Assembly: GCF_000621725.1 (NCBI RefSeq)
Contig: NZ_JHXM01000007.1
Coordinates: 124,001-188,000 of the forward strand
Direction: 5' to 3'
Length of the DNA stretch: 64,000 nt
DNA from: Xylanibacter brevis ATCC 19188
GTDB taxonomy: Bacteria; Bacteroidota; Bacteroidia; Bacteroidales; Bacteroidaceae
In this document: positions 11,850 through 35,997 of the stretch, in pieces
Layout of the letters: each line of letters begins with the position of its first letter
Numbering within the stretch: position 1 is the stretch's first letter
Translations under genes and position numbers: made by a program
The notes under the pieces: generated by a model
Seen by the model: the letters and a program-made list of their open reading frames with translations, nothing else
What the model was told of the DNA's origin: nothing
Database searches by the model: none

Positions 11850-11874
11850 CCGCATTCTCGGCTCTCTCTTGCCA

Positions 11875-11912
11875 TTTGTGCCAGAAAAACATCATTTTGG
11901 CACAAACGGAAA
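11875..11912 (+). promoter_or_regulatory. Putative operator of the mannosidase regulon, GH92 copy
   Basis: TTTGGCACAAACGGAAA lies at 11896-11912, reading towards GH92. It is identical to two boxes upstream of GH38 and ends 22 bp before the -7 element, exactly as there. A degenerate version (9 of 17 bases) starts at 11875, 21 bp upstream. A 21-bp direct-repeat spacing suits an AraC-type dimer. Confidence 0.72.
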
Positions 11913-11934
11913 GCCCTTTTTAAAATATAATGGC

Positions 11935-11942
11935 TATCTTTG
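11935..11942 (+). promoter_or_regulatory. -7 element of the GH92 promoter
   Basis: TATCTTTG matches TAnnTTTG. I see no good TTTG at the usual -33 distance, which fits a promoter that depends on an activator bound at the box immediately upstream. Confidence 0.65.
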
Positions 11943-12013
11943 CACCGCGTTTCTGCCGCTGTGGTAGCGACAGGGCGTGATTGAGACATTACCATCAACT
12001 AAAAATAGTAATA

Positions 12014-14302
12014 ATGATTATGAGACGAAAACTTTTAATGCTTGTTGCAAGTACCTGTATGGCATTTGCTGCACAGGCCAAAGGCAACTATGCCGACTAC
12101 GTGAGTACGCTGGTGGGAACAGACTCGAACTTCGAGCTTTCTACCGGTAACACCTATCCCGCCACAGCCATGCCGTGGGGCATGAACTTCTGGACACCGC
12201 AGACCGGAAATATGGGTGACGGATGGGTGTATAGCTACAGGGCCAACCGCATTCGCGGTTTTAAGCAGACGCATCAGCCTAGCCCGTGGATGAACGACTA
12301 CGGACAGTTTGCGCTGATGCCTACCACCGGCACCCCTGTGTTTGCCGAGGCCGACCGCGCCAGCTTCTTCAACCACAAGGCTGAGACCGCCCTGCCTTAC
12401 TACTACCAGGTGTATCTGGCCGACTACGACATCAACACCGAACTGGTGCCGACGGAACGTGCCGCCATGTTTCGCTTCACGTTCCCCGAGAACGAGCAGT
12501 CGTGCGTGGTCATCGATGCGCTGGACCGCGGTTCGGCCGTGACCATCATCCCCGCTGAACGTAAGATCGTGGGCTACTCGACCAAGAACAGTGGGGGCGT
12601 GCCGGGCAACTTCAAGAACTATTTCGTGATTGTCTTCGACAAGCCGTTCACCTATACCGCTGCCGTTCCTAATGGCGACATCCGCCAAGGCGAACTGGAA
12701 GCCAGCGGCAACCATGCCGGTGCCATCATTGGCTTTGCCACGAAGAAGGGCGAGCAGGTGCATGCACGCGTGGCGTCATCGTTTATCAGCACCGAACAGG
12801 CCGAGCTGAACCTGAAAGAGCTGGGCAAGCTGTCGTTCGACCAGCTGAAACAGAAAGGACGCGAGCGCTGGAACGAGGTGCTGGGACGCATTGAAGTAGA
12901 GAGCAGCGATGTGAACGAGTTGCGCACATTCTATAGTTGTCTGTATCGCAGCACACTGTTCCCACGCATGTTCCACGAGAAGAATGCCAAGGGACAGATT
13001 GTGCACTACAGCCCCCACACGGGCGAGGTGCTGCCAGGCTATCTGTTCACCGATACCGGCTTCTGGGACTCGTTTCGCGGACTGATGCCACTGGTGAACC
13101 TGATCTATCCCGAGATGAGCGCACAGATGGAAGAGGGCTTTTATAATTCCTATAAGGAGAGCGGCTTCTATCCCGAGTGGGCTACGCCCGGTCACCGCGG
13201 TTGCATGGTGGGCAACAACTCAGCCTCGGTGGTGGCCGACGCCTTTGTAAAGGGCAATATCAAGAAGGATGCCCTCGAGATGTATCAGGGACTGCTGAAG
13301 GGCGCCAATGCCGTTCACCCCACGGTGTCGTCGTCGGGCCGACTGGCTTTCAAGGAATACAACGAGCTGGGCTATGTGCCTTCTGACGTGGTGGGGCAGA
13401 GTGCCTCGCGCACGCTGGAGTATGCCTACGACGACTGGTGCATCTACCAGATGGGCAAGAAGTTGGGCCGCCCTGCCAGCGAGACAGACATCTACAAGCA
13501 GCGCTGCCTGAACTACAAGAATATCTATCATCCCAAATACGGCATGATGAGCGGACGCGACTCGAAGGGCAACTTCCCCGACGACTTCAAGGCTGATGAG
13601 TGGTGGGGCCCCTTCACCGAGGGCAACAGCTGGCACTGGACCTGGTGTGTGTTCCACGACATTCGCGGACTCATCTCGCTGATGGGTGGCGACCAGGCCT
13701 TCATCAACAAGCTAGACGCTGTATTCACCACACCTCCCACCTTTGGCGGCGCGGTGGACACACGCAAGCAGCTGATTCACGAGATGCGCGAAATGCAGGT
13801 GGTCAACATGGGACAGTATGCCCACGGCAACCAGCCCATACAGCACATGATCTACCTCTATAACTATGCCGGCGAGCCCTGGAAGACGCAGTACTGGGTG
13901 CGCGAGGCCATGCGCCGCCTCTACTTCGCCACGCCCGACGGCTACTGCGGCGACGAAGACAACGGACAGACCTCGGCATGGTATATCATGTCGGCACTGG
14001 GCTTCTACTCCGTTTGCCCCGCCACCGACCAGTATGTGCTGGGTGCCCCCCTGTTTAAGAAAGCCCGCGTGAACCTGGCCAACGGCAAGACCATCGACCT
14101 GTCGGCCCCCGCCAACAGCGACGCCAACCGCTACGTGCAGAAGCTCACGGTGAACGGCAAGGCGTACGACAAGAACTACTTCACCCACGAGCAGCTGATG
14201 CGCGGCGTGAAGCTGAACTACCAGATGGGCAGCACTCCCAACAAGCGTCGTGGCACCACCCCCTCTGCCTATCCCTATTCATTCTCAGATAACAACGAGT
14301 AA
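12014..14302 (+). CDS. GH92 exo-acting alpha-mannosidase
   Basis: The frame from 12014 (or 12020) starts a signal peptide (MRRKLLMLVASTCMAFAAQA). Family GH92 is recognised from VSTLVGTDSNFELSTGNTYP and GFKQTHQPSPWMNDYGQF in the N-terminal beta-sandwich. In the (alpha/alpha)6 domain there are GHRGCMVGNNSASVVADAF, EGNSWHWTWCVFHD, GNQPIQHMIYLYNYAG and GDEDNGQTSAWY. The last acidic stretch and the Glu of EGNSW are where the catalytic acids lie in this family. GH92 enzymes are calcium-dependent and release alpha-linked mannose from N-glycans or mannan. The gene is on the opposite strand to the SusC/SusD operon and 3.4 kb from its end, but it shares its operator. Confidence 0.93.
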   Translation: MIMRRKLLMLVASTCMAFAAQAKGNYADYVSTLVGTDSNFELSTGNTYPATAMPWGMNFWTPQTGNMGDGWVYSYRANRIRGFKQTHQPSPWMNDYGQFALMPTTGTPVFAEADRASFFNHKAETALPYYYQVYLADYDINTELVPTERAAMFRFTFPENEQSCVVIDALDRGSAVTIIPAERKIVGYSTKNSGGVPGNFKNYFVIVFDKPFTYTAAVPNGDIRQGELEASGNHAGAIIGFATKKGEQVHARVASSFISTEQAELNLKELGKLSFDQLKQKGRERWNEVLGRIEVESSDVNELRTFYSCLYRSTLFPRMFHEKNAKGQIVHYSPHTGEVLPGYLFTDTGFWDSFRGLMPLVNLIYPEMSAQMEEGFYNSYKESGFYPEWATPGHRGCMVGNNSASVVADAFVKGNIKKDALEMYQGLLKGANAVHPTVSSSGRLAFKEYNELGYVPSDVVGQSASRTLEYAYDDWCIYQMGKKLGRPASETDIYKQRCLNYKNIYHPKYGMMSGRDSKGNFPDDFKADEWWGPFTEGNSWHWTWCVFHDIRGLISLMGGDQAFINKLDAVFTTPPTFGGAVDTRKQLIHEMREMQVVNMGQYAHGNQPIQHMIYLYNYAGEPWKTQYWVREAMRRLYFATPDGYCGDEDNGQTSAWYIMSALGFYSVCPATDQYVLGAPLFKKARVNLANGKTIDLSAPANSDANRYVQKLTVNGKAYDKNYFTHEQLMRGVKLNYQMGSTPNKRRGTTPSAYPYSFSDNNE

Positions 14303-14338
14303 CTCCAAAGGCTCCGCCCTTTGCCCCATAACAAAACC

Positions 14339-14377
14339 AATGCCGGTTTGAACCATCACATAGTTCAAACCGGCATT
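14339..14377 (+). terminator. Intrinsic terminator after GH92
   Basis: AATGCCGGTTTGAAC (14339-14353) and GTTCAAACCGGCATT (14363-14377) form a perfect 15-bp stem with a 9-nt loop, followed by CTTTACC. It lies 37 bp after the GH92 stop. Confidence 0.8.
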
Positions 14378-14434
14378 CTTTACCTCTCGCCTCTCAGTTC
14401 TCACCTTCAAAGTTTGTCTTCTTGTCTTTCATTT

Positions 14435-15595: not shown

Positions 15596-15645
15596 ACGAT
15601 AGTATCGCTTGATGTGAGATCTTTGAGAATTAGAAATATGTTTTG

Positions 15646-15653
15646 CAAAAATA
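15646..15653 (-). promoter_or_regulatory. -7 promoter element for the AAA ATPase gene
   Basis: On the - strand TATTTTTG fits TAnnTTTG and lies about 50 bp upstream of the ATG. No clear -33 element is visible, so the call is tentative. Confidence 0.4.
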
Positions 15654-15793
15654 CTAATTTTATTTAGATATGAAAGAAAAAGATTGTGACATTCTCTTTA
15701 TTTTATGCATTTTTAGCGGAAATGGTGGCTTCGGTTTTCAAAAAGAAGTATATCGTGGGAACAGAGGTATAGAGCAATAAAGTTGCGACTTAC

Positions 15794-18631
15794 TCAGCAC
15801 TTGGAAGAAAAACTCTCATCTTGCGGCAAAGCCGCACCCCTCTCACTTTTCCTTCTCTCCCGATAGCTCTTTGGTGTCTCATCGAAATGTTTGCGAAACT
15901 CCTTGTAGAAGGTGGACTGCGTATCATAGCCCGTTTTGTACATCACCTCAGAGATGGTCATGTGGGTAGAGGCGAGCAGGCGTGCCGCCGTTTTGACACG
16001 ATAGTCCTTGATGAACTCCTTGACGGGTGGCAACTGGGCTGTCTCAAACTTGCGGTAGAGGTTGCGACGACTAATCTTTAGGATGTTGGCCAGCATCTCG
16101 GCATCCAGGTGCGAGTTGCCGATATGCTTATCGACGGCCTCGGTGACCTCTTCGAGGAAATCGTGTTGCTCTTTTTCGATGAGTGATTCCGTAAAACTGC
16201 CGTTGACCATTTGCGACTTTTCGCTGTTGATGATCATCTGCTGCAGTTGTGCTGCTTCCACCTCTTGCTTGCGACGCTGCTGTTGCCACCAGCGATGCAG
16301 CAGATAGCCGACGACAGCTGCACAACACAAATAGAGGGCGTAGGCCCACCACGTGCGGTACCAGGGTGGGGTGATGATGATATGAAGCAGAGCTTCGCCA
16401 CTTTCCTTGCCGGTGCTGATGTTGCGTGTCTTCACATACAGCGTGTAGTGGCCCGGTTGCATATCGCTAAAGGTAAACTGGTTGCTATGGCCGTTGGCTG
16501 TCCACTCGTCGCTGGCAGACAGACGATAATAGTAGTCTAGCATGGAACCGCCCAGATAGTCGTAGGTAGCTACGCCAATGGTGAAGAAGTTCTGCCGATG
16601 GTCCAGACGTAGGGTGCTGACCGCTGCTTCTGGATCCATAAAGTCGTTGATGTCCTGTTGGATGCCTTGAATGCTCAGGCGGTTGAAGTCTATCTGCAAC
16701 TTGTTGGCGCAGGGCGTTGCATGGGCATTGTAGCTAATGGCTGCAAGACCATTGATGGAGCCGAAAAGCAGCGTGTTGCCTGCATGGTAGGCTGCGCCGT
16801 CGCAATATTCCTTGAACCCTGGGATGGTGTTGCTGTCAACGACCTTGATAACGTCGCCTTGCAGACTAAGGGCAGCCAGACCAGCACTTGTTGAGGCCCA
16901 CACCTCGCCATGACTGCTCAATGTGAAGGCATGGATGGTGTTGGAGGGGAGACCGTGGCTGGTGTCTATATGTTTGACGGTGCCTTTATGGTCCAGGATG
17001 ATGATGCCGGCACTGGTGCCTATCCATAGGTTGTTGGCAATGTTTCTCAGAGCGAAGACGTCGTTGATGTTGGGTGTCTTCTCGGTATCGCCGAAGGGCA
17101 CATGCTCCAAGATGTCGCCCTTCAGTTTGTAGAGTCCCTTTCCGCGATTGCCGAAAAGCAGATAGCCCTGTGGCCCTTCGGCCATGCAGAAGAAGTAGTT
17201 GGACGACATGCTGCCGCCGTCAAGACGGTAGGACTTCACATCGCTGAGTTCCGGTTGTCCGTTCTTCTCGTCGATGTGTGCACTCACGATGCCGTTGCCC
17301 AGTGCTGCCAGCCATAGCCTACCGTCGCGCTCGGCCATGGCCATCACGTTGGCGGCATAGCCCGGCAGTGACATTCTGATAAAACGCTGGCTCTTTCTGT
17401 CGTAGCAACTCACGCCACGGTCGTGACCTATCCAGATGTGCTGTCCGTCTTTGCTGTCCAGTATGCTGAAGATGTTGCGACTCTCCAAGCCCGGCGTAGC
17501 GTCGTTGAAGTGGGTGCCCTGTGGCAGCGACTGACTGTTGGCGGTGCTGAAGTGCGGAACACGGAGCAGACCATCGCCCTTAGAACCAACCCACAGCGTG
17601 TTGTCGGCATCGAGCAGCAGGGCGCGGATGGCCTGTTGCTGCTTGGTGAAGATGCTTTTGCCCGTGTAGGTGCAGTAGGTATATGCCTCGTCGCTCAGCA
17701 TCATGGCGCCTTCGCCATCGGTGCCTATCCAGACGATGTCGTTATAGCGGTCTTTGGTCAGGCAGAACACGCCTGTGTTGATGTTCAGGTCGGTGATCTT
17801 CGGTGTGTCGTCAGGACCTTTCGGCAGCACAACGCTGATCATGCCGCCCGTGCCAAAGGCCATCAGCAGTTCGCCGTTGAACTCCACAATGTCGTTGATG
17901 CTGCCTCGCGTGGCCAGTTCGTGGCTCAGTGAGAACAGTTTCTGAAAGCGTCGGGTGGCGTAAGAGTAGGTCAACAGCATGCCCTGATCGTCGATGATAT
18001 ACTCTCTGTCGCCAACCTCTACGGCAGTACGGATGTTGGCAGCCCGCTGGTGGTATCGCCCTATCTGATACGTGCCGTCGGCATGGCGCAGCAGTTCGTA
18101 GGTCATGATACGGTTGTTTTGGAATACCAGCACTTGGTGGTTGGTCACCACATAGTCGCATGGCCAGGGTACATTGTCGCCCAATCCTAAAGAAAGAGAG
18201 TGGAAGTTGCCGTCGGATCCCATGTAGCAAAGACGTCCGTTGTCAAGAATGAAGCCGTCGCCCTTGGGGTTGCGCTTCATCTTTCTCAGTCCGGCAAACT
18301 GAGAGAAGAATTTATTCTCCTTCTTGTATCGTGTGAACACGTTAAGACCATAGTTGGTCAGCACCCATGTCTGGTTGCCATTGACGCACATCACGTTCTC
18401 GACAACACGTCCACGGATGCTATTCTTGCCATGGGTGTCGGCACTCCACACGCGTACACCATCGTAGCCATCGAGCCCGTCGAGGGTGCCAAAGAGCATC
18501 TCGCCACAGGGTTTTTGTTCTACGGACAATACAAAACTATTGGTCAGTCCTTGGATGTGCTTGATATTATAGGCACAGGTTGACTTTAGGACGCATGCCA
18601 ATAGGAATAAACCATACAGCCTTCGTCGCAT
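15794..18631 (-). CDS. Membrane-spanning sensor fused directly to an AraC-type regulator (kinase-less HTCS variant)
   Basis: A signal peptide (MRRRLYGLFLLACVLKSTCA) precedes a long periplasmic region of Reg_prop beta-propeller blades; repeats such as DIVWIGTDGEGAM, NTLWVGSKGDGLL, HIWIGHDRGVS and LWIGTSAGI are visible. A YYY-type domain follows (YLGGSMLDYYYRLSASDEW), then one membrane helix near residues 757-778 and a short coiled stretch. The last 120 residues are an AraC helix-turn-helix pair (MLANILKISRRNLYRKF and ISEVMYKTGYDTQSTFYKEF). Hybrid two-component regulators of Bacteroidota normally carry kinase and receiver modules before the AraC part, and both are absent here. It probably senses a mannose-rich oligosaccharide and activates the flanking mannosidase genes. 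Confidence 0.9.
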   Translation of the reverse strand: MRRRLYGLFLLACVLKSTCAYNIKHIQGLTNSFVLSVEQKPCGEMLFGTLDGLDGYDGVRVWSADTHGKNSIRGRVVENVMCVNGNQTWVLTNYGLNVFTRYKKENKFFSQFAGLRKMKRNPKGDGFILDNGRLCYMGSDGNFHSLSLGLGDNVPWPCDYVVTNHQVLVFQNNRIMTYELLRHADGTYQIGRYHQRAANIRTAVEVGDREYIIDDQGMLLTYSYATRRFQKLFSLSHELATRGSINDIVEFNGELLMAFGTGGMISVVLPKGPDDTPKITDLNINTGVFCLTKDRYNDIVWIGTDGEGAMMLSDEAYTYCTYTGKSIFTKQQQAIRALLLDADNTLWVGSKGDGLLRVPHFSTANSQSLPQGTHFNDATPGLESRNIFSILDSKDGQHIWIGHDRGVSCYDRKSQRFIRMSLPGYAANVMAMAERDGRLWLAALGNGIVSAHIDEKNGQPELSDVKSYRLDGGSMSSNYFFCMAEGPQGYLLFGNRGKGLYKLKGDILEHVPFGDTEKTPNINDVFALRNIANNLWIGTSAGIIILDHKGTVKHIDTSHGLPSNTIHAFTLSSHGEVWASTSAGLAALSLQGDVIKVVDSNTIPGFKEYCDGAAYHAGNTLLFGSINGLAAISYNAHATPCANKLQIDFNRLSIQGIQQDINDFMDPEAAVSTLRLDHRQNFFTIGVATYDYLGGSMLDYYYRLSASDEWTANGHSNQFTFSDMQPGHYTLYVKTRNISTGKESGEALLHIIITPPWYRTWWAYALYLCCAAVVGYLLHRWWQQQRRKQEVEAAQLQQMIINSEKSQMVNGSFTESLIEKEQHDFLEEVTEAVDKHIGNSHLDAEMLANILKISRRNLYRKFETAQLPPVKEFIKDYRVKTAARLLASTHMTISEVMYKTGYDTQSTFYKEFRKHFDETPKSYRERRKSERGAALPQDESFSSKC

Positions 18632-18841
18632 CTTACTATTTAGTTCAAGCTTTATGTATTTAGCTTTGCAAAATTAAACATTGTTTTTCGGTTGTACGAA
18701 TACTCCGGGTTTATTTAACTTTATTTAGATTGCTATCAGTCCTACAGGCCGTTCTTTGTCATATAAAGATGTCAAAGGATGATAGACCTGTGTTGAAGAC
18801 GTATGGCGCATGACCACCAGAAGAGCGGTGGGACATAAAGA

Positions 18842-18879
18842 AAGAGCGTGCACCGCTAACAAATGCGGCACACGCTCTT
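18842..18879 (-). terminator. Terminator of the SusC/SusD operon
   Basis: AAGAGCGTGCACCGC (18842-18856) pairs with GCGGCACACGCTCTT (18865-18879) with two mismatches. It lies 22 bp beyond the SusD stop on the - strand, and the following - strand bases are T-rich (CTTTCTTTATG). Confidence 0.75.
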
Positions 18880-18901
18880 GATATAGGATTATGGATGATG
18901 A

Positions 18902-20989
18902 TTACTGTTTGTTGTGCTCGTCAACCGTGCTCTCCCAACCCTTGTTCTGAACACAGAGATGGTTGCGGTTCAGCTCCTCCTGAGGAATGGGCAGCAGCGA
19001 CATGCGCTTAGCAAAGATACGGTGCTGCTGTACTACGCGCTTGTAGAACTTTAGGTCGGTAGCGGTGTTGCTGCCATAGAGGTTGTAGCCATACAGGTCG
19101 CCACCTTCACCACCCTTGTGGTAAGGAGCGTAGATCCAACCGTCGGTGAGTTCCTCGCCATTGGTGCGCCACTTACCTTCGGCCACACCCCAACGACGAA
19201 CGTCGTAGTAGTACTTGTTCTCGAATGCCATCTCGATGAGGCGCTCGCGATAGACTGCCTTCAGCACCGTGGTCTGGTCGTAGGCAGGCAGCGCGATGCG
19301 GTCTTCGCCACGAGCACCCTTGGTGTCGTCGCTGGCATTGACCTTATACTCTGCCACACCGGCACGTGCACGGATGGCATTGACGGCCGTCAGTGCTTCC
19401 TCCAGTTCGCCCAGCTCGGCGCAAGCCTCGGCATAGTTCAGGTAAACTTCGCCCAGACGCAGCAGCACACAGTAGCTCCAGCCGCCCAGTGCGCTACCAT
19501 ACTGACAGCTCTTGCGGCAGATGGTACCGAAGACGGGATAGTCGTGTGTACCAGATGAGTTAGGACCAGAGTTGCCCGAGTAGTTCATCTCGCTGGGAGC
19601 GTTTTTACCATTGCCAATGTTCCAAGGACGATTCTGGAAGGTGATGCCCAGATAGAAACGAGCCTCACGGTCGTAGAACTGCTTCATGATAGGATGTGCG
19701 TTCTGCATGGTGAAGTAGTTGTAGCCAGAATAGGGATCGTTGTAGGTGGTCTTACGCAGGTTCACCAGTGCGTTGGTGTATTGAGTCTCGTCGCCATACT
19801 CGTCATACGTGAAGTAGTCGGGGTCTTCCTCGATGCGCAGACCCTTGTTGGTGAAGTAGAGGTCCACGAACTCCAGGGGCACGGTGTAGGCACCGGCACC
19901 GCCGTCAACAGTTCCGTAGGGAGCGGGCAGCGAACCACCATTGTTGCGCGGCACCATGGGATAGGTGTCGGTAGAGTTCTTGGTGGTGCCTACGATCATC
20001 TCCTCGTTGTCGCTGTTGCCGATGCAGGCATAGAGAACAGAGTTGTAGGGACATGACTGATCAACCGAGTTGACCAGCTCGCCACTGCTGTTGCGCAGCA
20101 CCAGTCGCCACTGGCCGTCGTCGATCAGTTCCTTGGCAGCATCGCGGGCGTCAATCCATTTCTGGTTGTCGCGAGCTTGGGGGAACAGCTTCTTGCCGTC
20201 GGGATTAGTAACGTCGGCATAGAAGGGATCGCCATTGAACAGATAGCTGGCGCGGAACAACAGCACCTCAGAACGGATACCGCGAACAGTCTCTTCGGTG
20301 AAGTTGCCGGCATACTGACGAATGAAGGTGTTCTCGCTGTCGTACTTGGTCAGCAGGTCGCCACTGCTCAGCACATCGTCGAACTCGCTGAGAATGTAGT
20401 CGAAGCACTCGTCCACGGTGCTACGCTCTTCCATCATGTTGCCCAGGTCGTCTTCTACACCGTTCACACGGTCGCCAATGATTGCCACAGGACCGAAGTG
20501 CTTCATCAGACAGAAGTAGAAATAAGCTCTCAGTGCACGGCACTCGGCTTTGGTGGTAGCCTTCTCAGCATCGCTCAGAGGGTCGCACTCGTCCACATGC
20601 TGCAGGTACACGTTGGCATACTGAATGCCACGATAATAGTTGGTGAACATGTCGGCCACCCAACCAGTAGAAGGCGACAGCGTACCGTTGATGATGTTCA
20701 GATGCTTACCATTACCACCATCGCTCCAAGGCTGATAGCCCGAGAGTGAGGCATGTAGCATCATACCGTTGCTGGTACCTCCCTGATAGCGGGTCTGCAG
20801 GGTGTTGGGGATATAAGAATAAACGTTGGACAACCAACTGAGAGTCTGCCCACGGTTAGAGAAGACATCCTCGAGCGAAGTGGCGTTGTTGGGCACGTCG
20901 TCGAAGTAGTCGTCGCATGAGCTGAGTGTGAACGCAGTCATGGCGGTCAGCAAGACTCCAAAGCAATATTTCTTTGTTTTATTAATCAT
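18902..20989 (-). CDS. SusD/RagB-family glycan-binding lipoprotein
   Basis: The N-terminus is a lipoprotein signal with lipobox LSSC followed by acidic residues (CDDYFDD), the pattern for surface-exported lipoproteins in Bacteroidota. SusD signatures include TTKAECRALRAYFYFCLMKHFG, the C-terminal RLGEVYLNYAEACAELGELEEALTAVNAIRARAG, and RERLIEMAFENKYYYDVRRWG. At 695 aa it is longer than the usual 500-600. It caps the SusC porin and binds the oligosaccharide at the cell surface. Its start lies 19 bp after the SusC stop, so the two are co-transcribed. It is the last gene of the operon, before a terminator. Confidence 0.95.
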   Translation of the reverse strand: MINKTKKYCFGVLLTAMTAFTLSSCDDYFDDVPNNATSLEDVFSNRGQTLSWLSNVYSYIPNTLQTRYQGGTSNGMMLHASLSGYQPWSDGGNGKHLNIINGTLSPSTGWVADMFTNYYRGIQYANVYLQHVDECDPLSDAEKATTKAECRALRAYFYFCLMKHFGPVAIIGDRVNGVEDDLGNMMEERSTVDECFDYILSEFDDVLSSGDLLTKYDSENTFIRQYAGNFTEETVRGIRSEVLLFRASYLFNGDPFYADVTNPDGKKLFPQARDNQKWIDARDAAKELIDDGQWRLVLRNSSGELVNSVDQSCPYNSVLYACIGNSDNEEMIVGTTKNSTDTYPMVPRNNGGSLPAPYGTVDGGAGAYTVPLEFVDLYFTNKGLRIEEDPDYFTYDEYGDETQYTNALVNLRKTTYNDPYSGYNYFTMQNAHPIMKQFYDREARFYLGITFQNRPWNIGNGKNAPSEMNYSGNSGPNSSGTHDYPVFGTICRKSCQYGSALGGWSYCVLLRLGEVYLNYAEACAELGELEEALTAVNAIRARAGVAEYKVNASDDTKGARGEDRIALPAYDQTTVLKAVYRERLIEMAFENKYYYDVRRWGVAEGKWRTNGEELTDGWIYAPYHKGGEGGDLYGYNLYGSNTATDLKFYKRVVQQHRIFAKRMSLLPIPQEELNRNHLCVQNKGWESTVDEHNKQ

Positions 20990-21008
20990 GATTATCTATA
21001 TTATACTG

Positions 21009-24000: not shown

Positions 24001-24293
24001 AGGATGATATCAATCAGGGTCTTGTTGGCCTTGCGCTCTTCAGCCTTATAGCCCACATAGGTGGTGGTAATGATGTCACCCTCAGAACAATTGATGGTGT
24101 ACTGGCCGTTGACGTCGGTCATTACACCATTTGATGTGCCTTTCACTTGTACGGTGACGCCAATGAGCGGTTCGCCGTTGACGTCTTGTACGCGTCCCGT
24201 CACTTTGATGGGACCTGCGAGTGCGCAGGTCACCATCATTGTGGCAAAGAACGATAGCAGCGTTTTTTTGATACAATCTGCTGTTATTCTCAT
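21009..24293 (-). CDS. SusC/RagA-family TonB-dependent outer-membrane transporter
   Basis: After a signal peptide comes a carboxypeptidase-like domain (VTGRVQDVNGEPLIGVTVQV, then GQYTINCSEGDIITTTYVGY). A TonB-box region (DEVTVVGYST) follows, then the plug with SVLAGRVAGVVSVQRTGVPG, IRGISTLTN and ESITVLKDAASTAVYGVRG, and a long beta-barrel to a terminal aromatic strand (FSIGVNFNL). At 1094 aa the length is normal. It imports oligosaccharides, presumably mannose-containing given the GH38 and GH92 partners. It is third in the operon, after the GLUG protein (30-bp gap) and before SusD. Confidence 0.96.
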   Translation of the reverse strand: MRITADCIKKTLLSFFATMMVTCALAGPIKVTGRVQDVNGEPLIGVTVQVKGTSNGVMTDVNGQYTINCSEGDIITTTYVGYKAEERKANKTLIDIILHEQVNDIDEVTVVGYSTRKKISVLGAQTTLKMDDVKAPVANMTSVLAGRVAGVVSVQRTGVPGQDDSDIWIRGISTLTNRNEGPLVLVDGIERSWNNLSPEDIESITVLKDAASTAVYGVRGGNGVIIITTKPGEVSKPKFSFDVFQGITSLTKVPDLVDGIEYMHAVNEAYQTSRGYDYYGANQIINTKIANGMPLTADELTYKQGLIDGNGGKLPASINKYLYPNVDWMREMYHKYGWNRRANVNIRGGAPNASYYISLSYYTEKGLTKDDPSQDFSSEIDYNRYNFLTNVNLKATKTTNLDVGVSGWLASGNYPHESLKDIFSRAMTTNPVIFPVQYADGRSPGSSPHDYSLDSPWETLTRRGYQTQHQTQINTNLKLTQDLGFFDWSKGLTARALVAFDFRATQALKYQVRNSSWKPTGRQQNGVWVEDTSLYPQLTDENGNLLWVKDGNGNDTTTPLLDTRPEMLLLTEQYRGNNSMNVTADKWVYRTFYFEGALDYRRTFNRYHNVTGLLLFNMRSYLDANNNDLLQTLPYKQQSLSTRLTYDYDNRYFVELNGGYTGSENFEPGHRFGFFPAVAFGWVPSNEKWWDPISKYISFFKIRYSNGKVGNSSTDGRFTYFTQIGGTGDGGKYSSYWGNDGLGFNRYGYTPQWSVVHKQDLGIEINFLDNELTFIVDLFKENRSKIFVSRDNVPLSAGFATNISANVGKVENKGMEASFEYHHQFGKDLYMSLRGNMAMNDDKVIENAQADPAHPWLDRRGHNVLAEWGYVAEGLYTSDQQIKDRNITQFGETYPGELVAPGDIMYKDMNGDGHIDEYDQVCISRGDVPRIYYGFGGDLRWKNVGLGILFQGVADAERILRGNGIRPFTSTSGGGTLYSNIADRWSADDPENTDVFYPLLAWGENDPHNINNFKTSTWWKRDFSFMRLKQFTISYYFPKSWTRNTFISGGRFYLMGENVLTFSKFKLWDPELNTDNGISYPNVRTFSIGVNFNL

Positions 24294-24323
24294 ATTTACT
24301 TACTGTTTTTCAAGTATAAATTA

Positions 24324-27300
24324 TTATTTAATCACTACCTTGTTGCCATTCACAACATAGACACCCTTCTTCAGGTTGCCCTTCATCTGGCGTCCGTTCA
24401 GGTCGTAGATGTGCTTCTTGGCAACAGTTGTTTGCTGTCCGTTCAGTTCAACAATGCCGTCGGGGTTGTTGTTCTCCTCTGACAGGGTGAAAGGAACGTA
24501 GCCGATGTTCTTCAGAACAGGATACTTGTAACCAGATTTGGTGTCGAAGGTCCAGATGTTCTCGAAGTCCCATCCAATGTTTGTGTAGGTGCTCTGCTCC
24601 TCCAACGTCTGTGTGGGAACGTCGGTCTGATATTCTACAAAACCACCCTCGGCAGTCTCGTTGCTGAAGGGCCAAGGATTCTCGGGTACACCTACGAGGT
24701 CCTGGAACTGGTTGGCAATGTTGTTGGTGAAGGTAATCTTACCGTTAGGCGTGTCGCCAGCACCATTCTTTCCGATGAACGAACCAGCGTGGCTCCAGTT
24801 GTTGGAAGAAGACCAGATGTCGCCGATAGATACACAACCCTCGATGGTGATTTCGCTGTTGGCTACATCGACCAAACCAATGAAACCACCGGCGCAACCG
24901 CGGAACACGGCATCCATCTTACCATTGTAGTATGTGTTGCGGATGGTTGCACCCTTGTCAAGTGTACATCCGAAGATACCGCCAATCTGCTGGTTAGCAG
25001 TCACCTCACCCCATACATAGCAGTTCTCAACGGTAGCATTCACACCGTCGCCGGCCAGCAGAGCAACGTGGTCGTTACCCATAACCTTACCAGTCAGTGC
25101 TACGTTCTCGATGGTGCAGTTCTCTGCACGGCCGATGAAGCCGATGTGGTTGGCACTCTTATTGGGCGAGATAACCTGGAAGTCCTCGAAGGCTACGTTT
25201 TTGATGATACCACCGTTCACGTTGCCAAAGATACCCTTGTTGTCGCCGCTGGCTACGTTTACGGTAGCGTTCTTGATGCGGTGTCCCTGTCCGTCGAAGG
25301 TACCAGAGAAGGCATTGCCATCGTTGAAGAGACCCTCGAACTCAACGTCCTTCATGTCTATGTCGGCAGTCAGGAGAAACTTGCCTGAAGGCATCTTCTT
25401 CATGTCCTTCAGATCTTCTACTGTAGAGATCTCGGTAACAATATCGTTGGCAGTTACGGGGATAGAGAAGCTGTTCTCACCAACCACGGTGAACAGTTCG
25501 GCCAGGCCGCTAGGCATGTTGGCCTGGATGGTCAGTGTACCCATGCCGAGGAATACGCCATTCTCGTCAGAGCAGTAGAGCTTGGTGCCGTCAACCACGT
25601 CAACCAGGTTCTCACCTTCAGTGATTTTGATGTCAAGAGCCTGACCCCATGAGGCGTGAACCTTGGTCAGATCCTTGAACTCAGAACCGGCCTCATAGAC
25701 CAGTGCAGAGTTGAACTCGTCGTCGATGATGCGAGTCTTCAGTGGGGTCTTCATGATCTTCAGTATGGGGAACATCTTTCCTTCGGCGTTAGGCAGGAAG
25801 GTCCAGGTGTTCTCGAAGTCCCATCCCAGTGTAGTGGTATAGAAAGCCTTGGTGCGTGCGGTGTTGTCGTCGATCATTGCGCCCTGCTCGTTGTCTGCGC
25901 TGCCGGAAACAGTGCTGAACGAACCGTTGCAAACGGTAGAAGCCATCACGTAGTTGTTAGAGAGCACGGTGTTGTTGCGCTTAGACTGTGCAATACGTGG
26001 GGTGTTGGGATCGCCACCATTGATGTGGGCAGCTCCAGAGAAGCAGTTCGTGATGGTGGTGGGATAGGTGTCAGAGTCGATCAGAGAGATGAAGCCATTA
26101 TTGCAAGAGTTGTTTCGCAAGTCTTCGGCGGTACCGCTGAACAGACAGTTCTTCAGTACGCCACCGTTGGCCACACCAACCATACCGCCCGACTGGTACT
26201 GACGGGTCTTTACCTGTGCATCAGAGATACAGTCAGAGATTTCGCTCAGAGCGCCGAAGTCGTTGCTCATGTCGCCGGTGAAAGAACCTACGTGGTCGCG
26301 ACCTTCGATGTATGAGTTCATGACGAAGATGCGACGAACGATACCGCCATAGACGTGACCGGCTACGGCACCTACGTTCTCGTTACCTACCAAGTAGGCA
26401 TCCTCGAAGCCCAGGTCCTCGACAAGGGCGCTGCGGGTGGTAGAGAAGAGACCCACGTTGGCCTGACCGGAATTGTCGAAGCGCATGCCACGAATCACGT
26501 GACCGTTACCATGCAGCTTACCGGTGAACTCGGGCAGTGGGGTGAACTCAACGTCTGTCAGGTCGATGTCGGCCACGATGTCGAACTCGCCACTGGGGTT
26601 CTGTTTCAGTTTGGTCAGCAGGTCGTCGGCCGTCTTGATGTCGGTATCCATGCTGTTGACAGTGATGGTGTAGCTCTTGCTGAAGCCTTTGATGTAGTCG
26701 TCGCCCTCGGTAGAGATGGTAACGACGGCCTCGCCGGTGGTCAGAGCTGTTATTTTTGTACCATCAACGGCAATCACATTGGGGTTGCTGCTGCTGATGG
26801 TCACCTGACGGTCTAAGGTAGAGAAGGGAGCCAGATCCACAGAGGTGCCCTTGAAGAACTCAGGCAGGCTGTTGTGAACCACGTAGTCTCCATCGAAAGG
26901 CACTGACATACCCTGCAGTATAGGGAAGCGGCCGTCGGCCATATCCCAGGCGTCCTCGTTCCAACCAATGGCTGTGTAAGTGGCTTTTTGCTTCAGTTCA
27001 GCCTCGGTCTTGGGAATACCATTATATTGACTCTGCTTGATGGTGTCCAGTTTGCCACCGGTGATGTCTGCACCTGTGCGGATACTACCAACATAGTAGC
27101 GTGTGGGCTCAAGAACCAAGCAGTTGTTCAATACTGATTTGGGGTCTGGGTCATTGTTACCAACAATGGCATGAATGTGATAGTTGGCAACACCGTCAGC
27201 TACACCCAGAGAGACAGGTGCAGCCACACAGCCATTGATAGTACAGCTGCCAGGACCTTCCTGCAGACCAACGATGGCGCCGCAACCATTCCAGCTGTTG

Positions 27301-27902
27301 CCGGCATACACCTGACCCAGGAACAGGTTGTTGGTGTAGCTACCATCGTAGTTGTCGCCAGCAATACCGCCAGCCTGATAGCCTGAGCTATAGACCGCCA
27401 TGGTGCTCAGACAGTTGATGATCTCTGTGCCGTTGCGCACGTCACCAGCGATACCACCCACGTGGTCGTGGCCATAGGCTACACCCGACGTGAAGCAGCT
27501 TTTGATGGTGACGCCCTGGGCGTTACCCACGATGGTACCTACGGCCTTGCCGTTGCCGTATTGTCCAACTTCAGCGTTGGTCAGTCGAACATTCTCGATG
27601 ATGGCACCGCTAGCCGTACCGAACAGGCCAAGGTTCTCACCGCCGCCGATACGGAGACCGTTGATGGTGTGGCCCTGTCCGTTGAATGTTCCGCAGAATG
27701 GATTTTGGGCATTGCCGATAGGTGTCCATTCTTCACTCAGGGTGATGTCGCTTGTCAGCACGTATTCACCCGTTAAATCATTAGCCATTGCCTTCAGACC
27801 TTCAGCGGTGCTGATTTCGGTCTGTGCGCTGGTTCCCAGTGATGCCAGCAAGACAAGTGCTAAACCAAAGGATTTTTTTAGTCCATGTAATGATTTACAC
27901 AT
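24324..27902 (-). CDS. Large exported GLUG-repeat/Ig-like surface protein with a type IX-type C-terminus
   Basis: A signal peptide (KKSFGLALVLLASLGTSAQ) is followed by three long units. Each opens with a segment like ISTAEGLKAMANDLTGEYVLTSDI and then has FCGTFNGQGHTINGLRI- and GIAGDVRNGTEIINC-type repeats. These are GLUG-type beta-helix repeats. Bacterial Ig-like (BIG_2) segments lie between them (TISSSNPNVIAVDGTKITALTTGEAVVTIST). The C-terminus (HIYDLNGRQMKGNLKKGVYVVNGNKVVIK in pattern) is a sorting-type domain of T9SS cargo. No catalytic motif is seen. Placed between GH38 and SusC in the same operon, it may serve as a surface glycan-binding protein. Confidence 0.82.
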   Translation of the reverse strand: MCKSLHGLKKSFGLALVLLASLGTSAQTEISTAEGLKAMANDLTGEYVLTSDITLSEEWTPIGNAQNPFCGTFNGQGHTINGLRIGGGENLGLFGTASGAIIENVRLTNAEVGQYGNGKAVGTIVGNAQGVTIKSCFTSGVAYGHDHVGGIAGDVRNGTEIINCLSTMAVYSSGYQAGGIAGDNYDGSYTNNLFLGQVYAGNSWNGCGAIVGLQEGPGSCTINGCVAAPVSLGVADGVANYHIHAIVGNNDPDPKSVLNNCLVLEPTRYYVGSIRTGADITGGKLDTIKQSQYNGIPKTEAELKQKATYTAIGWNEDAWDMADGRFPILQGMSVPFDGDYVVHNSLPEFFKGTSVDLAPFSTLDRQVTISSSNPNVIAVDGTKITALTTGEAVVTISTEGDDYIKGFSKSYTITVNSMDTDIKTADDLLTKLKQNPSGEFDIVADIDLTDVEFTPLPEFTGKLHGNGHVIRGMRFDNSGQANVGLFSTTRSALVEDLGFEDAYLVGNENVGAVAGHVYGGIVRRIFVMNSYIEGRDHVGSFTGDMSNDFGALSEISDCISDAQVKTRQYQSGGMVGVANGGVLKNCLFSGTAEDLRNNSCNNGFISLIDSDTYPTTITNCFSGAAHINGGDPNTPRIAQSKRNNTVLSNNYVMASTVCNGSFSTVSGSADNEQGAMIDDNTARTKAFYTTTLGWDFENTWTFLPNAEGKMFPILKIMKTPLKTRIIDDEFNSALVYEAGSEFKDLTKVHASWGQALDIKITEGENLVDVVDGTKLYCSDENGVFLGMGTLTIQANMPSGLAELFTVVGENSFSIPVTANDIVTEISTVEDLKDMKKMPSGKFLLTADIDMKDVEFEGLFNDGNAFSGTFDGQGHRIKNATVNVASGDNKGIFGNVNGGIIKNVAFEDFQVISPNKSANHIGFIGRAENCTIENVALTGKVMGNDHVALLAGDGVNATVENCYVWGEVTANQQIGGIFGCTLDKGATIRNTYYNGKMDAVFRGCAGGFIGLVDVANSEITIEGCVSIGDIWSSSNNWSHAGSFIGKNGAGDTPNGKITFTNNIANQFQDLVGVPENPWPFSNETAEGGFVEYQTDVPTQTLEEQSTYTNIGWDFENIWTFDTKSGYKYPVLKNIGYVPFTLSEENNNPDGIVELNGQQTTVAKKHIYDLNGRQMKGNLKKGVYVVNGNKVVIK

Positions 27903-27923
27903 AGTTTAAAGATTAATAATTAA

Positions 27924-30900
27924 TTAATGATATGAAGCAAAAAGTCGCTTTGCGTTGGTATGTAATGTTCCGTTCTTGCTTTGAGCGGTCAGGTAGTAGA
28001 GATAGATGCCTTCTGGCAGCATGCCTCGCCAAGTGAGCTGTTGGTCGCCGGGGCCGACGCAGTAGTCTTGTTGACAGACCTGCCTACCGTCTATGGTGGT
28101 CAGGTGCAGCGTCAGCTTGTCAACGCCTGGCGGCACCTGACAGTGGATGTGTGTCATGCCGGCGCAGGGGTTGGGGGTGTTGCCATATAGCAATAGGGAG
28201 CGGCGGTGGTTGGTGTCCGCCACTGTTAAGTCTTCTATGCTGAGTGTGCTTGCGGGTGTGCCAAAAACGGCAAACTCGTTGATGCGTGTGGTAAAGTTCT
28301 GCTGTTCGCCCTGTGTAATCTGCAGGCGCACGCGACTGGTGGTGAATGGTGTCACGCCGCGCACTATCTTGTTCTCGCGGTTGGCCGTCACTACATCCAC
28401 GTCTACCCATCTGCCGCCCTCGTAGCGCTGCAACTTGCAGGCCTTGGTGATGTAGTCGCCAGCCTCGTTGCCGGCATTCAGCACCATCCATTGGCAGATC
28501 TGCATGGGTTCACTGAATCGATATTCCAGATAGGGCGTTTGATTCTGGTTGCCGCTGACGCACCATTTGGTCATCTCGTCGTTGTCGGCAGCCATCTTGC
28601 CTGCTTCGTTGTTGTTGATTTGCTGACTGGCTGCAATGGTCTGTGGCTCCAGTCGTTGACCACAGTGACCTTCTTCCAAGTAGTCCAGCTCCTGATAATT
28701 AATATAGGTGTTGAGTGCTGTCAGCGGTGTGATGTCGTCGCTGGGGTTGTCTGACGTGGTGGCAGCCAACAAGTAGAGGGTGTTGTTGGTGGGCAACTGC
28801 AGTGTCTGGGCGTGTTCGGACAGGGCCAGTGCGTACTTGTAGATGTATAGGAAACGATAGGCCTCGTTGCTGTTGCCGCTTATGTTGTGGCTGTGTGTGG
28901 TGCAGAGGGCTACGTCTTGTTGGCGATAGTGGGTGCCGGTATTGTAGGGCGAAGCCAGCTGACCTGTCACGCCACCATAGTAGGGCACTTCGATGTGGTA
29001 GGTTTGACCGTCAATCTTTATCTCGGCCATTGCACCGTTCTTGTTGGTTGAGGCCATGAGCAGGTATAGCTTGCGCCCTTTAGCCGTTGTGAGGTCGATG
29101 GTCTGCTGGTTGCAGCGCACCGCATTCTTATCGCCACCTGCGCGACTGCCCATGGTGAATGCCACACCACCCGTGGTCAGCACATCGGGTATCTGCTCGG
29201 CAGGATAGGCCTGGTCGCTGATGCCCAGCACGTCGTTCTTCTTCGAGTCGTAGCTCATCACGTCGGCATTGTAGGGCAGGGCGATGGCTGTTGAGGTCTC
29301 GTCGGTTGACGAGGGCTGCACGCTGGTCGTCTGCAACTTCACGGCAAAGGTCTTAGGTTGGTATTTCTCGATGTTGAAGACCAGCGTACGACCGTCGTAG
29401 GTGGCTTCGCCAAGTGATTCTTCCAGTCCGTTGACCTCACGAGCCGAGAGGATGTCGGCGGGGAATGTCATGCTGACGCGGTCGTGGTGCTGTCCGCTCC
29501 ATTCATAGACGCGTACAATCAGCTCGTCGCTCTCCTCGGCTTTCTTCACAGCCTTCACCGATACCTGGTCGGTGCTCAGCGAGACGAGGCTGGCCTCGGT
29601 ATTCAGCGTACCGTCGTGTTTCGGCGCAGTGAACGCCAGCAATGGCTGGTTGAGCTGTGCAGCCGCCATCTGTGTCTGCTGGCTCCATGCCCCGTCGTGG
29701 GGGAAAAGGGCGTAGGTGAATAGGTTCACACCTAAGTCCTGATCGGCCTGGTAGGTGTAGTTGTTGCCTGTAGATGGCGTGTGAATCAGGGTCAGTCGAA
29801 GGGTGTAGTCGTCGGGCTTGTCCCAACCATATTTACAGTCGTTGAGAATAGACAGGCCATAACTGCCGTCGGTGGTCGAAAGGTCGGCCCACTGGTGGCC
29901 TTGCACCTCGTATTGGTTGCTGTTGCGGTTGCCACGCTCGATGGTGCCCAGCGAGAGGTCGTAGGTGGCTTTCGGGGTGCCGAAGGGTGTCTTGAAACAG
30001 GCTTTCAGCATACGTCCACGCGACTGCCAGTCGGCCTCGGTGTCGATGTCTATGCGGTTGTTCAGCGCGTTCATGCGCACATACTGCACAAACGTAGAAC
30101 CGTTTTTCTCTCTGACCACGCGGAAACTCTTGCGCAGCGGACCGTCTTCGGCCAGTTCGATGGTGACATTCTCGTCGACAAGCTCTGGTTGGCGCTGTAT
30201 GTCGGTATAGGAGATTTCCCACGAGGGCCATGCGTCTTCATGGTCGTAGATCATCTGCAATTGCGAGCTGGCGAGCAGGTTGGTGCCTGTGGCCATGTTG
30301 ATAAGCTGCATGGGGTTGCCCGTGCTAGAGAGTGTCAAGCGGTATTGGCCGTTGGACAACTGGCGGGTGCGCTTGCTGGCCTGCAGGTCGGATGTCATGG
30401 ACGAGGCTTCGCCCAGTCTGACGTCGTAGGTGGCGTAGCCCAGCGAAGGTACGGTGGCGGCAAAGATGAACGTCAGTTCGCCGGTGGTCTCGTCGTAGTG
30501 GCTTATCTGTGAAAGAACCTCGGTGCCGTCTTTGCAGAAAACGGCGATTCCATCGGGTTTCTCGTCGGTTTTTAGCTTGCCTTCCACAATGTCTGTACGG
30601 GCGAACGACAGAGGGTTGAAGACAACCACTGGTAGTCCTTCTGTCTGTGTGTTCATCCTGCTGACGATGCTGCCTGCTGTTGTGGCCATGGTCTGTGCCA
30701 GCGATTTGTTGACCAGCACGTAGTCGCCTACGGAGTAATAGTAGGCGTTGGGGATGCTGGTGCCCGTGATGCCGTCGTGGTGCGACTGCCATAGATTGCG
30801 CACCCAAGCCTCGTTGATCTCTGTCTGTGGGTAGGCTTGAACGCCCAACCACTGGGCCAGCGAGGCAGCCTTTTCACAGGCGTCAGCCAACAGCTCGTTC

Positions 30901-31892
30901 TTGCGGTTCCAACGTTTCAGCATGGTGCGCGAGGTATAGGCACCTACACCGTGCGTGCGCATGGGCAACTCACCATTCTTTACGTGATATTTACTGTTTT
31001 TGTGCAGGTCAAGGAAGTCGAAGATCTCATCGGGTGTAGCCATCTTGACGGTGGTGGCACCCTCGGTCTTGGCGCTGAGGTTCAGCCAATAGGGGGTGTT
31101 CTCACCTTGCTGCGAGGCATTGTCTTGCAGACCGCCGCCACGGTCGCTTCGCGGACCGACATAGCGAATCTCGGCAGCCACACCATATTTATTATAGTTG
31201 TTGGCAATGATGCTTGCCATCTCGCTGTCGGTGGCCATGTTCTTGTTGTATTGCTCGTGACTATCGTAGGCACCGGGCTTATAGATGGCATACACCTGCG
31301 AGCCATCCACGCCTTGCCAGATGCCGAAGGGCGGCAGCTGGTCGTAGTCGGCCGAGCCCCATGCCAGCTTAGCGGTGTGGAAACCTTTGAAGCCACAGTG
31401 GTGCATCAGCGAGGGTAGGGCGTATGAGAAACCGAAACAGTCGGGCAGCATCACGTCGTAGCCACCGCGCACGCCAAACTCTTTCTTAAAGAATTGGTTG
31501 GCATAGAGCCAGTTGCGCATCACGGACTCGGCCGACGGCACCATCACGTCGTTGGCATCCACCGCGCAACCGCTGATGTGCCAGCGCCCTTGGGCCACCT
31601 GCTCTTTCAGTTGTGCATAGAGATCGGGGTAGTATTCTTTCATCCACATGTAGCGGATGGCTCCTTCGTGATTGAAAACAAGATTGGGATATTTGTCTAG
31701 TAGTGTGAAGTTCTGTTGCAACGTGTTGCGCACGTACTCATTAATAGTGGTTCGCACGTCCCAGTTCCACTGCGTATCTAGGTGCGCATTGGAAATGAAG
31801 AAGAGCGTGCCATTAGTAGTCTGACCCAACATGCCTTGGGGTATGGCCAATAGAAACAATAATAACCTAATTAAGGTTTTGTGTTGACTCAT
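27924..31892 (-). CDS. GH38 alpha-mannosidase with C-terminal discoidin-like and sorting domains
   Basis: A signal peptide (residues 1-24) precedes the GH38 catalytic domain. The zinc motif is SNAHLDTQWNW (His37, Asp39), the probable nucleophile is in MLPDCFGFSYALPSL (Asp151), and a further zinc histidine is in SHHDGITGTSIPNAYYY. Middle and C-terminal beta domains follow (QLSNGQYRLTLSSTGNPMQL). Near residue 1120-1240 a discoidin-like module appears (YLEYRFSEPMQICQWMVLNAG, then SRVRLQITQGEQQN). The final 90 residues resemble a T9SS sorting domain (LTLHLTTIDGRQVC, LPEGIYLYYLTA). At 1322 aa it is longer than most bacterial GH38 enzymes. It is first in the operon. Confidence 0.92.
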   Translation of the reverse strand: MSQHKTLIRLLLFLLAIPQGMLGQTTNGTLFFISNAHLDTQWNWDVRTTINEYVRNTLQQNFTLLDKYPNLVFNHEGAIRYMWMKEYYPDLYAQLKEQVAQGRWHISGCAVDANDVMVPSAESVMRNWLYANQFFKKEFGVRGGYDVMLPDCFGFSYALPSLMHHCGFKGFHTAKLAWGSADYDQLPPFGIWQGVDGSQVYAIYKPGAYDSHEQYNKNMATDSEMASIIANNYNKYGVAAEIRYVGPRSDRGGGLQDNASQQGENTPYWLNLSAKTEGATTVKMATPDEIFDFLDLHKNSKYHVKNGELPMRTHGVGAYTSRTMLKRWNRKNELLADACEKAASLAQWLGVQAYPQTEINEAWVRNLWQSHHDGITGTSIPNAYYYSVGDYVLVNKSLAQTMATTAGSIVSRMNTQTEGLPVVVFNPLSFARTDIVEGKLKTDEKPDGIAVFCKDGTEVLSQISHYDETTGELTFIFAATVPSLGYATYDVRLGEASSMTSDLQASKRTRQLSNGQYRLTLSSTGNPMQLINMATGTNLLASSQLQMIYDHEDAWPSWEISYTDIQRQPELVDENVTIELAEDGPLRKSFRVVREKNGSTFVQYVRMNALNNRIDIDTEADWQSRGRMLKACFKTPFGTPKATYDLSLGTIERGNRNSNQYEVQGHQWADLSTTDGSYGLSILNDCKYGWDKPDDYTLRLTLIHTPSTGNNYTYQADQDLGVNLFTYALFPHDGAWSQQTQMAAAQLNQPLLAFTAPKHDGTLNTEASLVSLSTDQVSVKAVKKAEESDELIVRVYEWSGQHHDRVSMTFPADILSAREVNGLEESLGEATYDGRTLVFNIEKYQPKTFAVKLQTTSVQPSSTDETSTAIALPYNADVMSYDSKKNDVLGISDQAYPAEQIPDVLTTGGVAFTMGSRAGGDKNAVRCNQQTIDLTTAKGRKLYLLMASTNKNGAMAEIKIDGQTYHIEVPYYGGVTGQLASPYNTGTHYRQQDVALCTTHSHNISGNSNEAYRFLYIYKYALALSEHAQTLQLPTNNTLYLLAATTSDNPSDDITPLTALNTYINYQELDYLEEGHCGQRLEPQTIAASQQINNNEAGKMAADNDEMTKWCVSGNQNQTPYLEYRFSEPMQICQWMVLNAGNEAGDYITKACKLQRYEGGRWVDVDVVTANRENKIVRGVTPFTTSRVRLQITQGEQQNFTTRINEFAVFGTPASTLSIEDLTVADTNHRRSLLLYGNTPNPCAGMTHIHCQVPPGVDKLTLHLTTIDGRQVCQQDYCVGPGDQQLTWRGMLPEGIYLYYLTAQSKNGTLHTNAKRLFASYH

Positions 31893-31929
31893 TATTACTA
31901 TTTAGCGATTTTTAGTTTTTTTTCGACCG

Positions 31930-31937
31930 CAAAGTTA
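31930..31937 (-). promoter_or_regulatory. -7 element of the GH38-GLUG-SusC-SusD operon
   Basis: TAACTTTG on the - strand fits TAnnTTTG, about 38 bp upstream of the GH38 ATG. There is no TTTG at -33; two operator boxes lie directly upstream instead. Confidence 0.68.
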
Positions 31938-31959
31938 TGCGATTAGGAATTAATTCGAC

Positions 31960-31997
31960 TTTCCGTTTGTGCCAAAGTTGTTTCCGTTTGTGCCAAA
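31960..31997 (-). promoter_or_regulatory. Putative operator of the mannosidase regulon, GH38 copies
   Basis: Two identical 17-bp boxes, TTTGGCACAAACGGAAA in the direction of transcription, occupy 31960-31976 and 31981-31997, a 21-bp period. The proximal box ends 22 bp before the -7 element. The same box at the same distance precedes GH92. AraC activators often bind direct half-sites about 21 bp apart. Confidence 0.78.
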
Positions 31998-35975: not shown

Positions 35976-35997
35976 TAATACTAAAACAAAAATCAAT

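What the first reader, a model, noticed from the sequence alone, without database searches (positions are those of the whole stretch)
11875..31997. Shared operator links GH92 and the SusC/SusD operon across 20 kb
The 17-bp box TTTGGCACAAACGGAAA occurs identically before GH92 (11896-11912) and twice before GH38 (31960-31976 and 31981-31997), always reading towards the gene. In both promoters it ends exactly 22 bp before the -7 element. The second box lies 21 bp upstream in both, perfect at GH38 and 9/17 at GH92. Neither promoter has a usual -33 element. The simplest reading is that the membrane-bound AraC regulator at 15.8-18.6 kb activates both.
Basis: partly seen in the sequence, partly recalled or inferred. 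Interest (0 to 1): 0.85.

Follow-up and report, generated by a model that had tools for sequence, protein, structure and literature searches.

The report
Shared operator of mannoside-use genes
Two promoters 20 kb apart in a Prevotella-type bacterium share the same DNA switch, very probably read by one membrane-bound sugar sensor that has lost the kinase relay kept by its closest relatives; switches of this kind are known, but the kept switch beside a lost relay is a testable variant.

Summary
TTTGGCACAAACGGAAA occurs exactly three times in the 3.49-Mb genome, all at the GH92 and GH38 promoters, ending 22 bp before the -7 element. One correction: the second GH92 half-site is an inverted copy (14/17, 11869-11885).

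Two close species keep both operators. Relatives whose regulators share 41-43% of the sensor and 51-59% of the DNA-binding domain carry TTTGGCA-N32-TANNTTTG, some with one mismatch, beside the regulator. In ten loci gap 32 has 13 hits; the 59 other gaps have 4 together. In six whole genomes 10 of 13 hits lie at the regulator's locus; three overlap ORFs. A pre-stated test on a further genome failed in strict form but gave one one-mismatch site at the predicted place.

[quoted passage not shown] Direct repeats about 21 bp apart are the published HTCS operator form, so the kind is known.

The parts
11869..11885 (-). distal half-site of the GH92 operator, inverted copy of the box (14/17)
   Evidence: conserved in G117 and RUI122
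11896..11912 (+). proximal box of the GH92 operator, exact
11935..11942 (+). -7 element TATCTTTG of the GH92 promoter, 22 bp after the box
11981..14302 (+). GH92 alpha-mannosidase (ORF as listed, TTG start; the G117 match starts at residue 14, so the true start is probably an ATG near 12014-12020)
15794..18631 (-). regulator: Reg_prop propeller, Y_Y_Y, membrane span near residues 760-778, HTH_18; no kinase or receiver
18669..18676 (-). TAATTTTG element before the regulator gene, without the box
18902..20989 (-). SusD-like protein
21009..24293 (-). SusC-like TonB-dependent importer
24324..27902 (-). 1,192-aa protein with M26_N match, no HExxH motif
27924..31892 (-). GH38 alpha-mannosidase with F5/8 type C domain, first gene of the operon
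31930..31937 (-). -7 element TAACTTTG of the GH38 promoter, 22 bp after the proximal box
31960..31976 (-). proximal box of the GH38 operator, exact
31981..31997 (-). distal box of the GH38 operator, exact, 21 bp upstream, direct repeat

Best explanation
The box is the operator of the neighbouring membrane regulator (15794-18631), which controls GH92 and the GH38-SusC-SusD operon together. Shown by sequence: two operators, each with a proximal box fixed 22 bp before the -7 element and a second half-site 21 bp further out (direct at GH38, inverted at GH92); a regulator with periplasmic propeller, one membrane span and AraC-type DNA-binding domain; absence of the kinase and receiver that its closest relatives have. 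Inferred: an alpha-mannoside oligosaccharide (from mannan or N-glycans) binds the propeller, the dimer rearranges across the membrane, and the two tethered DNA-binding domains settle on half-sites two helical turns apart; the proximal one stands about where the missing -33 element would be and recruits RNA polymerase, so importer and mannosidases are switched on together without a phosphorelay.
For: Three exact copies in the genome, all at these two promoters. Box pair in 2 of 398 genus genomes, the same two that hold the 95-100% identical regulator; a third close species, RUI122, has both operators. TTTGGCA to TANNTTTG at gap 32: 13 hits, all 59 other gaps 4. In six whole genomes with the regulator lineage, 10 of 13 pattern hits are at its locus and the control has 0; the other 3 overlap ORFs. 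Closest relatives are full-length HTCSs next to alpha-mannosidases. Period of 21 bp equals the mean published for HTCS operators (PMC3878776, section 8).
Against: No binding or expression data. The strict prediction for G751 failed; only a one-mismatch site was found. The distal half-site varies in orientation and distance and is weak in several relatives. G196 has an exact match before SusC without a close regulator. With one mismatch the longer pattern also occurs in genomes without the regulator: 43 such sites, so background is not zero. Several of the genomes are close kin and not independent. The seven unrelated HTCS-length proteins of the own genome were not tested as alternative readers.
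Confidence: 0.75

Rival explanations
1. The box is the operator of another, unlinked transcription factor (for example a Crp-like factor or a mannose-responsive regulator) and the neighbouring regulator acts elsewhere.
For: Binding is untested; G196 has the pattern without a close DNA-binding-domain relative.
Against: A global factor should have many sites; only three exact copies exist, all in this locus. Box and regulator lineage co-occur in 5 of the 6 genomes with the exact longer pattern, and the sites sit beside the regulator in each of these five.
Confidence: 0.12
2. The regulator uses the box, but as a repressor or in both directions, not as a simple activator.
For: Sign of control cannot be read from sequence; AraC-type proteins can do both (recalled).
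Against: Neither promoter has a TTG in the spacer where a -33 element would be expected, and the box lies just upstream of it at a fixed distance, which suits activation.
Confidence: 0.1
3. The repeats are recombination sites that flip GH92, and their place at promoters is secondary.
For: GH92 with its operator is inverted in the window relative to G117 and RUI122, and homology resumes at 11870, inside the first bases of the distal half-site.
Against: The box keeps its distance to the -7 element in all arrangements seen; recombination between the GH38 and GH92 boxes would flip about 20 kb, not GH92 alone.
Confidence: 0.03

Closest known systems
HTCS operators of Bacteroides thetaiotaomicron, above all HTCS_Man-1/2/3 (BT2628, BT3302, BT3786; predicted in PMC3878776)
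   Same: tandem half-sites about 21 bp apart (16-bp sites with a 5-bp spacer for HTCS_Man; 17-bp boxes with a 4-bp spacer here) before SusC/SusD and mannosidase genes; AraC-type reader
Full-length HTCS relatives in G249, G305, G269, G337, G751
   Same: 41-43% sensor identity, 51-59% DNA-binding-domain identity, loci with GH92 or GH125, TTTGGCA-N32-TANNTTTG promoters (one mismatch in G751)
   Different: they keep about 390 residues of kinase and receiver (Pfam-checked in G305 only); clear distal half-site in G249/G305/G106 is at 28 bp, not 21
SusR of the starch system
   Same: kinase-free, membrane-spanning regulator of Sus genes (PMC3878776 passages; membrane position partly recalled)
   Different: SusR's DNA-binding domain resembles no other known one and its predicted sites are 67 or 77 bp apart (PMC3878776 passages)

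Membership tests
[quoted passage not shown]
   match to solved HTCS sensors 4a2l and 3v9f
hybrid two-component system (HTCS) regulator | cytoplasmic histidine kinase domain | tested here: not met
   no HisKA or HATPase_c; gap in alignment with the G305 and G249 HTCSs
hybrid two-component system (HTCS) regulator | receiver domain | tested here: not met
   no Response_reg; gap in alignment
hybrid two-component system (HTCS) regulator | C-terminal AraC-type DNA-binding domain | tested here: met
   HTH_18, 1.2e-20
HTCS-type operator | two conserved sites in direct repeat, mean distance 21 bp | tested here: met
   GH38 operator: two exact copies, 21 bp
HTCS-type operator | same direct-repeat form at the second promoter (GH92) | tested here: not met
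   distance 21 bp, but the distal half-site is inverted
HTCS-type operator | bound by the regulator | not testable with these tools
   needs EMSA or footprint
SusR | sites 67 or 77 bp apart | tested here: not met
   21 bp here; SusR value from PMC3878776

The most novel reading that the evidence does not exclude
A hybrid two-component sugar sensor became a one-component membrane activator by clean loss of kinase and receiver, while its operator core and its distance to the promoter stayed fixed. If it is active, phosphorelay is dispensable for target choice and control, and loss of the receiver, reported to hold the DNA-binding domain inactive in Bacteroides HTCSs, has been made good by ligand-driven dimer geometry; the different distal half-site (28 bp in the G305 group, 21 bp here) could be part of that change.
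Probability: 0.45. Interest if true: 0.65.

Novelty: new variant of a known kind. Interest (0 to 1): 0.5.

Why it matters
It gives a defined operator, with a promoter distance kept down to about 50% identity of the DNA-binding domain, for a regulator lineage of polysaccharide-use loci outside Bacteroides, and a natural pair of regulators, with and without kinase and receiver, at the same kind of operator. That makes it testable what the phosphorelay adds in HTCS control. Co-regulation of the two promoters is itself what one would expect of such a locus.

Tried and rejected
Rejected: the box as a frequent genomic motif (three exact copies). Looser matches as further regulon members: 16 against 12 in the control; the one two-mismatch site, C1:151205, lies inside an ORF; the other 3-mismatch sites were not examined one by one. 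Over-reading avoided: of 14 relaxed-core hits at gap 49, 6 are distal half-sites of operators already listed and 8 are not. A box before the regulator's own gene: none found. G196 is left undecided: 43 one-mismatch sites over 18 specified bases suggest roughly one exact match by chance in 398 genomes (my estimate). Rfam had no match in L060 and L059. Paper searches listed nothing whose title or shown abstract describes a kinase-less HTCS regulator; 'HTCS-like' in the two papers checked by passages is used for the regulator of a B. ovatus mannan locus elsewhere called an HTCS. The library holds open-licence papers only. L024 (Flavobacterium alvei, 22% identity) was not followed. No structure was predicted and no tree was built; the order of domain loss rests on identities and on HTCS length in the five relatives.

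Full report
OBSERVATION. The box TTTGGCACAAACGGAAA is present exactly at 11896-11912 (+), 31960-31976 (-) and 31981-31997 (-). The window's genome (3,492,520 bases, 99.8% complete) holds no other exact copy; with up to 3 mismatches there are 16 matches against 12 for the reversed pattern. At both promoters the box ends 22 bp before a TANNTTTG element, the GH38 boxes start 21 bp apart, and neither spacer holds a TTG. At GH92 the upstream element is an inverted copy: 14 of 17 bases at 11869-11885 on the minus strand against 9 of 17 in direct reading. Both readings fall on the same element because the 11-base core TTTG-NNN-CAAA is nearly palindromic; core starts are 21 bp apart either way.

GENES. 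GH92 (11981-14302), the regulator (15794-18631), SusD, SusC, a 1,192-residue protein with an M26_N match and no HExxH, and GH38 with an F5/8 type C domain are present. An AAA ATPase gene (14435-15595) lies between GH92 and the regulator. The regulator has Reg_prop, Y_Y_Y, a hydrophobic span near residue 760 and HTH_18; Pfam finds neither histidine kinase nor receiver.

CLOSE RELATIVES. In 398 genomes drawn from the genus the box pair with up to 3 mismatches occurs in two, the window's own and G117; these are also the only two of the 398 with a regulator 95-100% identical. A third, Prevotella sp. RUI122 (JAILHK010000011.1; whole genome G398), came from the named-genome scan (2 loci, the other a distant Flavobacterium) and has both operators. 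In G117 and RUI122 GH92 is co-directional with the regulator and follows it; in the window GH92 with its operator is inverted, and the AAA gene lies in a stretch without a match in the 32 kb of G117 that I fetched. Homology resumes at 11870, one base inside the distal half-site, so what the promoter needs upstream probably ends there (inference).

MORE DISTANT RELATIVES. Four more of the 398 genomes (G249, G305, G269, G337) carry a 42-43% homologue over the sensor at E up to 1e-70; G751 came from a family sample (3 of 399 genomes match, the own genome and G337 included; 1 of 30 genera). In all five the open frame has HTCS length, 1,334-1,342 aa; Pfam on the G305 protein gives HisKA, HATPase_c, Response_reg and HTH_18. 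Their loci hold alpha-mannosidases: a GH92 86.9-88.0% identical to the window's in G249 and G305, GH125 in G305 and G269 and a 92.6% match to the latter in G751; in G337 a 485-aa frame stands at the same place (not scanned). G106 holds the C-terminal part of the same HTCS and the same GH92 on a 4.6-kb contig. Alignment of the window, G117, G305 and G249 proteins shows a gap of about 390 residues between membrane span and DNA-binding domain in the first two. In eight genomes searched, the closest DNA-binding domains outside the window's and G117's are 58-59% (G106, G249, G305) and 51-52% (G269, G337), the next 36%; G751 has 52%. The kinase-receiver part was therefore most likely lost in the window's lineage (inference; no tree). 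In the own genome 7 of 11 Y_Y_Y proteins have HTCS length (length only); of the other four, the window's and two more (717 and 727 aa) are sensor-AraC proteins without a kinase match and one has a different helix-turn-helix. So the kinase-less form is not unique.

OPERATOR IN THE RELATIVES. In ten loci (248,240 bases) TTTGGCA followed by TANNTTTG occurs 13 times at gap 32 and 4 times at the 59 other gaps from 10 to 69: three at gap 53, which is where the distal GH38 box falls in three species, and one at gap 19. With one mismatch allowed: 15 at gap 32, 39 over the other gaps, at most 5 at any one. The 15 sites stand before GH38 and GH92 in the window, G117 and G398; just after the HTCS in G249, G305 and G106; before GH92 and (one mismatch) GH125 in G305; before the GH125 or 485-aa gene in G269, G337 and (one mismatch) G751; and before SusC in G196. 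The sequences between box and -7 element differ, so the shared gap is not simply one promoter inherited. In whole genomes of six species the exact pattern occurs 13 times, 10 at the regulator locus, control 0; the other 3 overlap ORFs of 150 aa or more. The longer pattern (11-base core, 28 bp, TANNTTTGC) has 8 exact sites in 6 of 398 genomes (G000 and G117 two each; G249, G305, G106, G196 one each) and 43 one-mismatch sites; 44 of 398 genomes have a site of either kind; the reversed control has 7 sites up to one mismatch (my count of its rows). One-mismatch sites therefore carry little weight by themselves.

A PREDICTION AND ITS RESULT. Before reading G751 I wrote down that an exact TTTGGCA-N32-TANNTTTG should lie near the regulator, before a mannosidase or SusC gene. 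No exact match was found in 40 kb. With one mismatch there was exactly one, TTTGACA-N32-TATCTTTG, directly before the GH125 gene, in line with the G269 and G337 sites. The strict prediction failed; the relaxed result points the same way.

WEAK POINTS. The distal half-site is not constant: direct at 21 bp (GH38), inverted at 21 bp (GH92; G196 with 9 of 11), inverted at 28 bp (G305), weak elsewhere. G196 (89% complete) has no close DNA-binding-domain relative and its contig ends near the site, so it may be chance. Close species are not independent; the hypergeometric value of 2e-7 for 4 shared genomes (6 and 6 of 398) ignores kinship and leaves out G106, whose regulator was recognised only through the box. 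Binding and sign of control are not shown.

MECHANISM AND LITERATURE. Ravcheev et al. 2013 (PMC3878776; section 8 read, passages) predicted direct-repeat operators with a mean of 21 bp for 16 B. thetaiotaomicron HTCSs, the mannan-related ones with two 16-bp sites and a 5-bp spacer, and suggested dimers two helical turns apart. The GH38 operator fits this. The proximal box lies just upstream of where a -33 element would be, which suits class II activation (inference). A 2024 paper (PMC11253607, passages) reports that the receiver holds the DNA-binding domain of Bacteroides HTCSs inactive until phosphorylation; the window regulator has neither part, so if it is active another control, most simply ligand-driven dimer geometry across the membrane, must operate (inference). 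Sequence matches to the solved HTCS sensors 4a2l and 3v9f suggest oligosaccharide sensing; alpha-mannosides as signal follow from GH38, GH92 and, in relatives, GH125 (inference).

VERDICT. Real, conserved and very probably the operator of the local regulator; the kind is known, and the kinase-less regulator with a kept operator is the variant worth testing.

Noticed in passing
L060 (G305) 14658-14826; same in L059 (G249) and L097 (G106): In the three full-length-HTCS loci of this group the box promoter just after the HTCS gene leads into about 120 nt without an evident ORF, ending in a strong hairpin and T run (fold -33.1 kcal/mol, z -2.97), before the tail-to-tail GH92: a possible small RNA under the same operator, or a left-over leader. 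Rfam has no match.
   Followed up: partly
window 11850-15896: GH92 with its operator is inverted relative to G117 and RUI122, an AAA ATPase gene sits in the unmatched stretch beside it, and the last residues of the regulator differ from G117's.
   Followed up: partly
L101 115-2265 (+) and L105 946-3126 (-), own genome C6 and C1: Two more sensor-AraC proteins (717 and 727 aa) with Reg_prop, Y_Y_Y and HTH_18 but no kinase match.
   Followed up: no
window 24324-27902: Operon protein of 1,192 aa with an M26 peptidase N-terminal-region match but no HExxH motif; perhaps a surface or binding protein rather than a peptidase.
   Followed up: no
window 33848-34744 and 35863-39078: An Abi_2 protein and a 1,071-aa protein with tubulin-like and GYF_2 domains lie beside the locus.
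   Followed up: no
L098 (G196) 13062, minus strand: Exact core, 28 bp and -7 element before a SusC/SusD operon with a TTTGTGACATA half-site 21 bp upstream, in a genome without a close regulator relative.
   Followed up: partly
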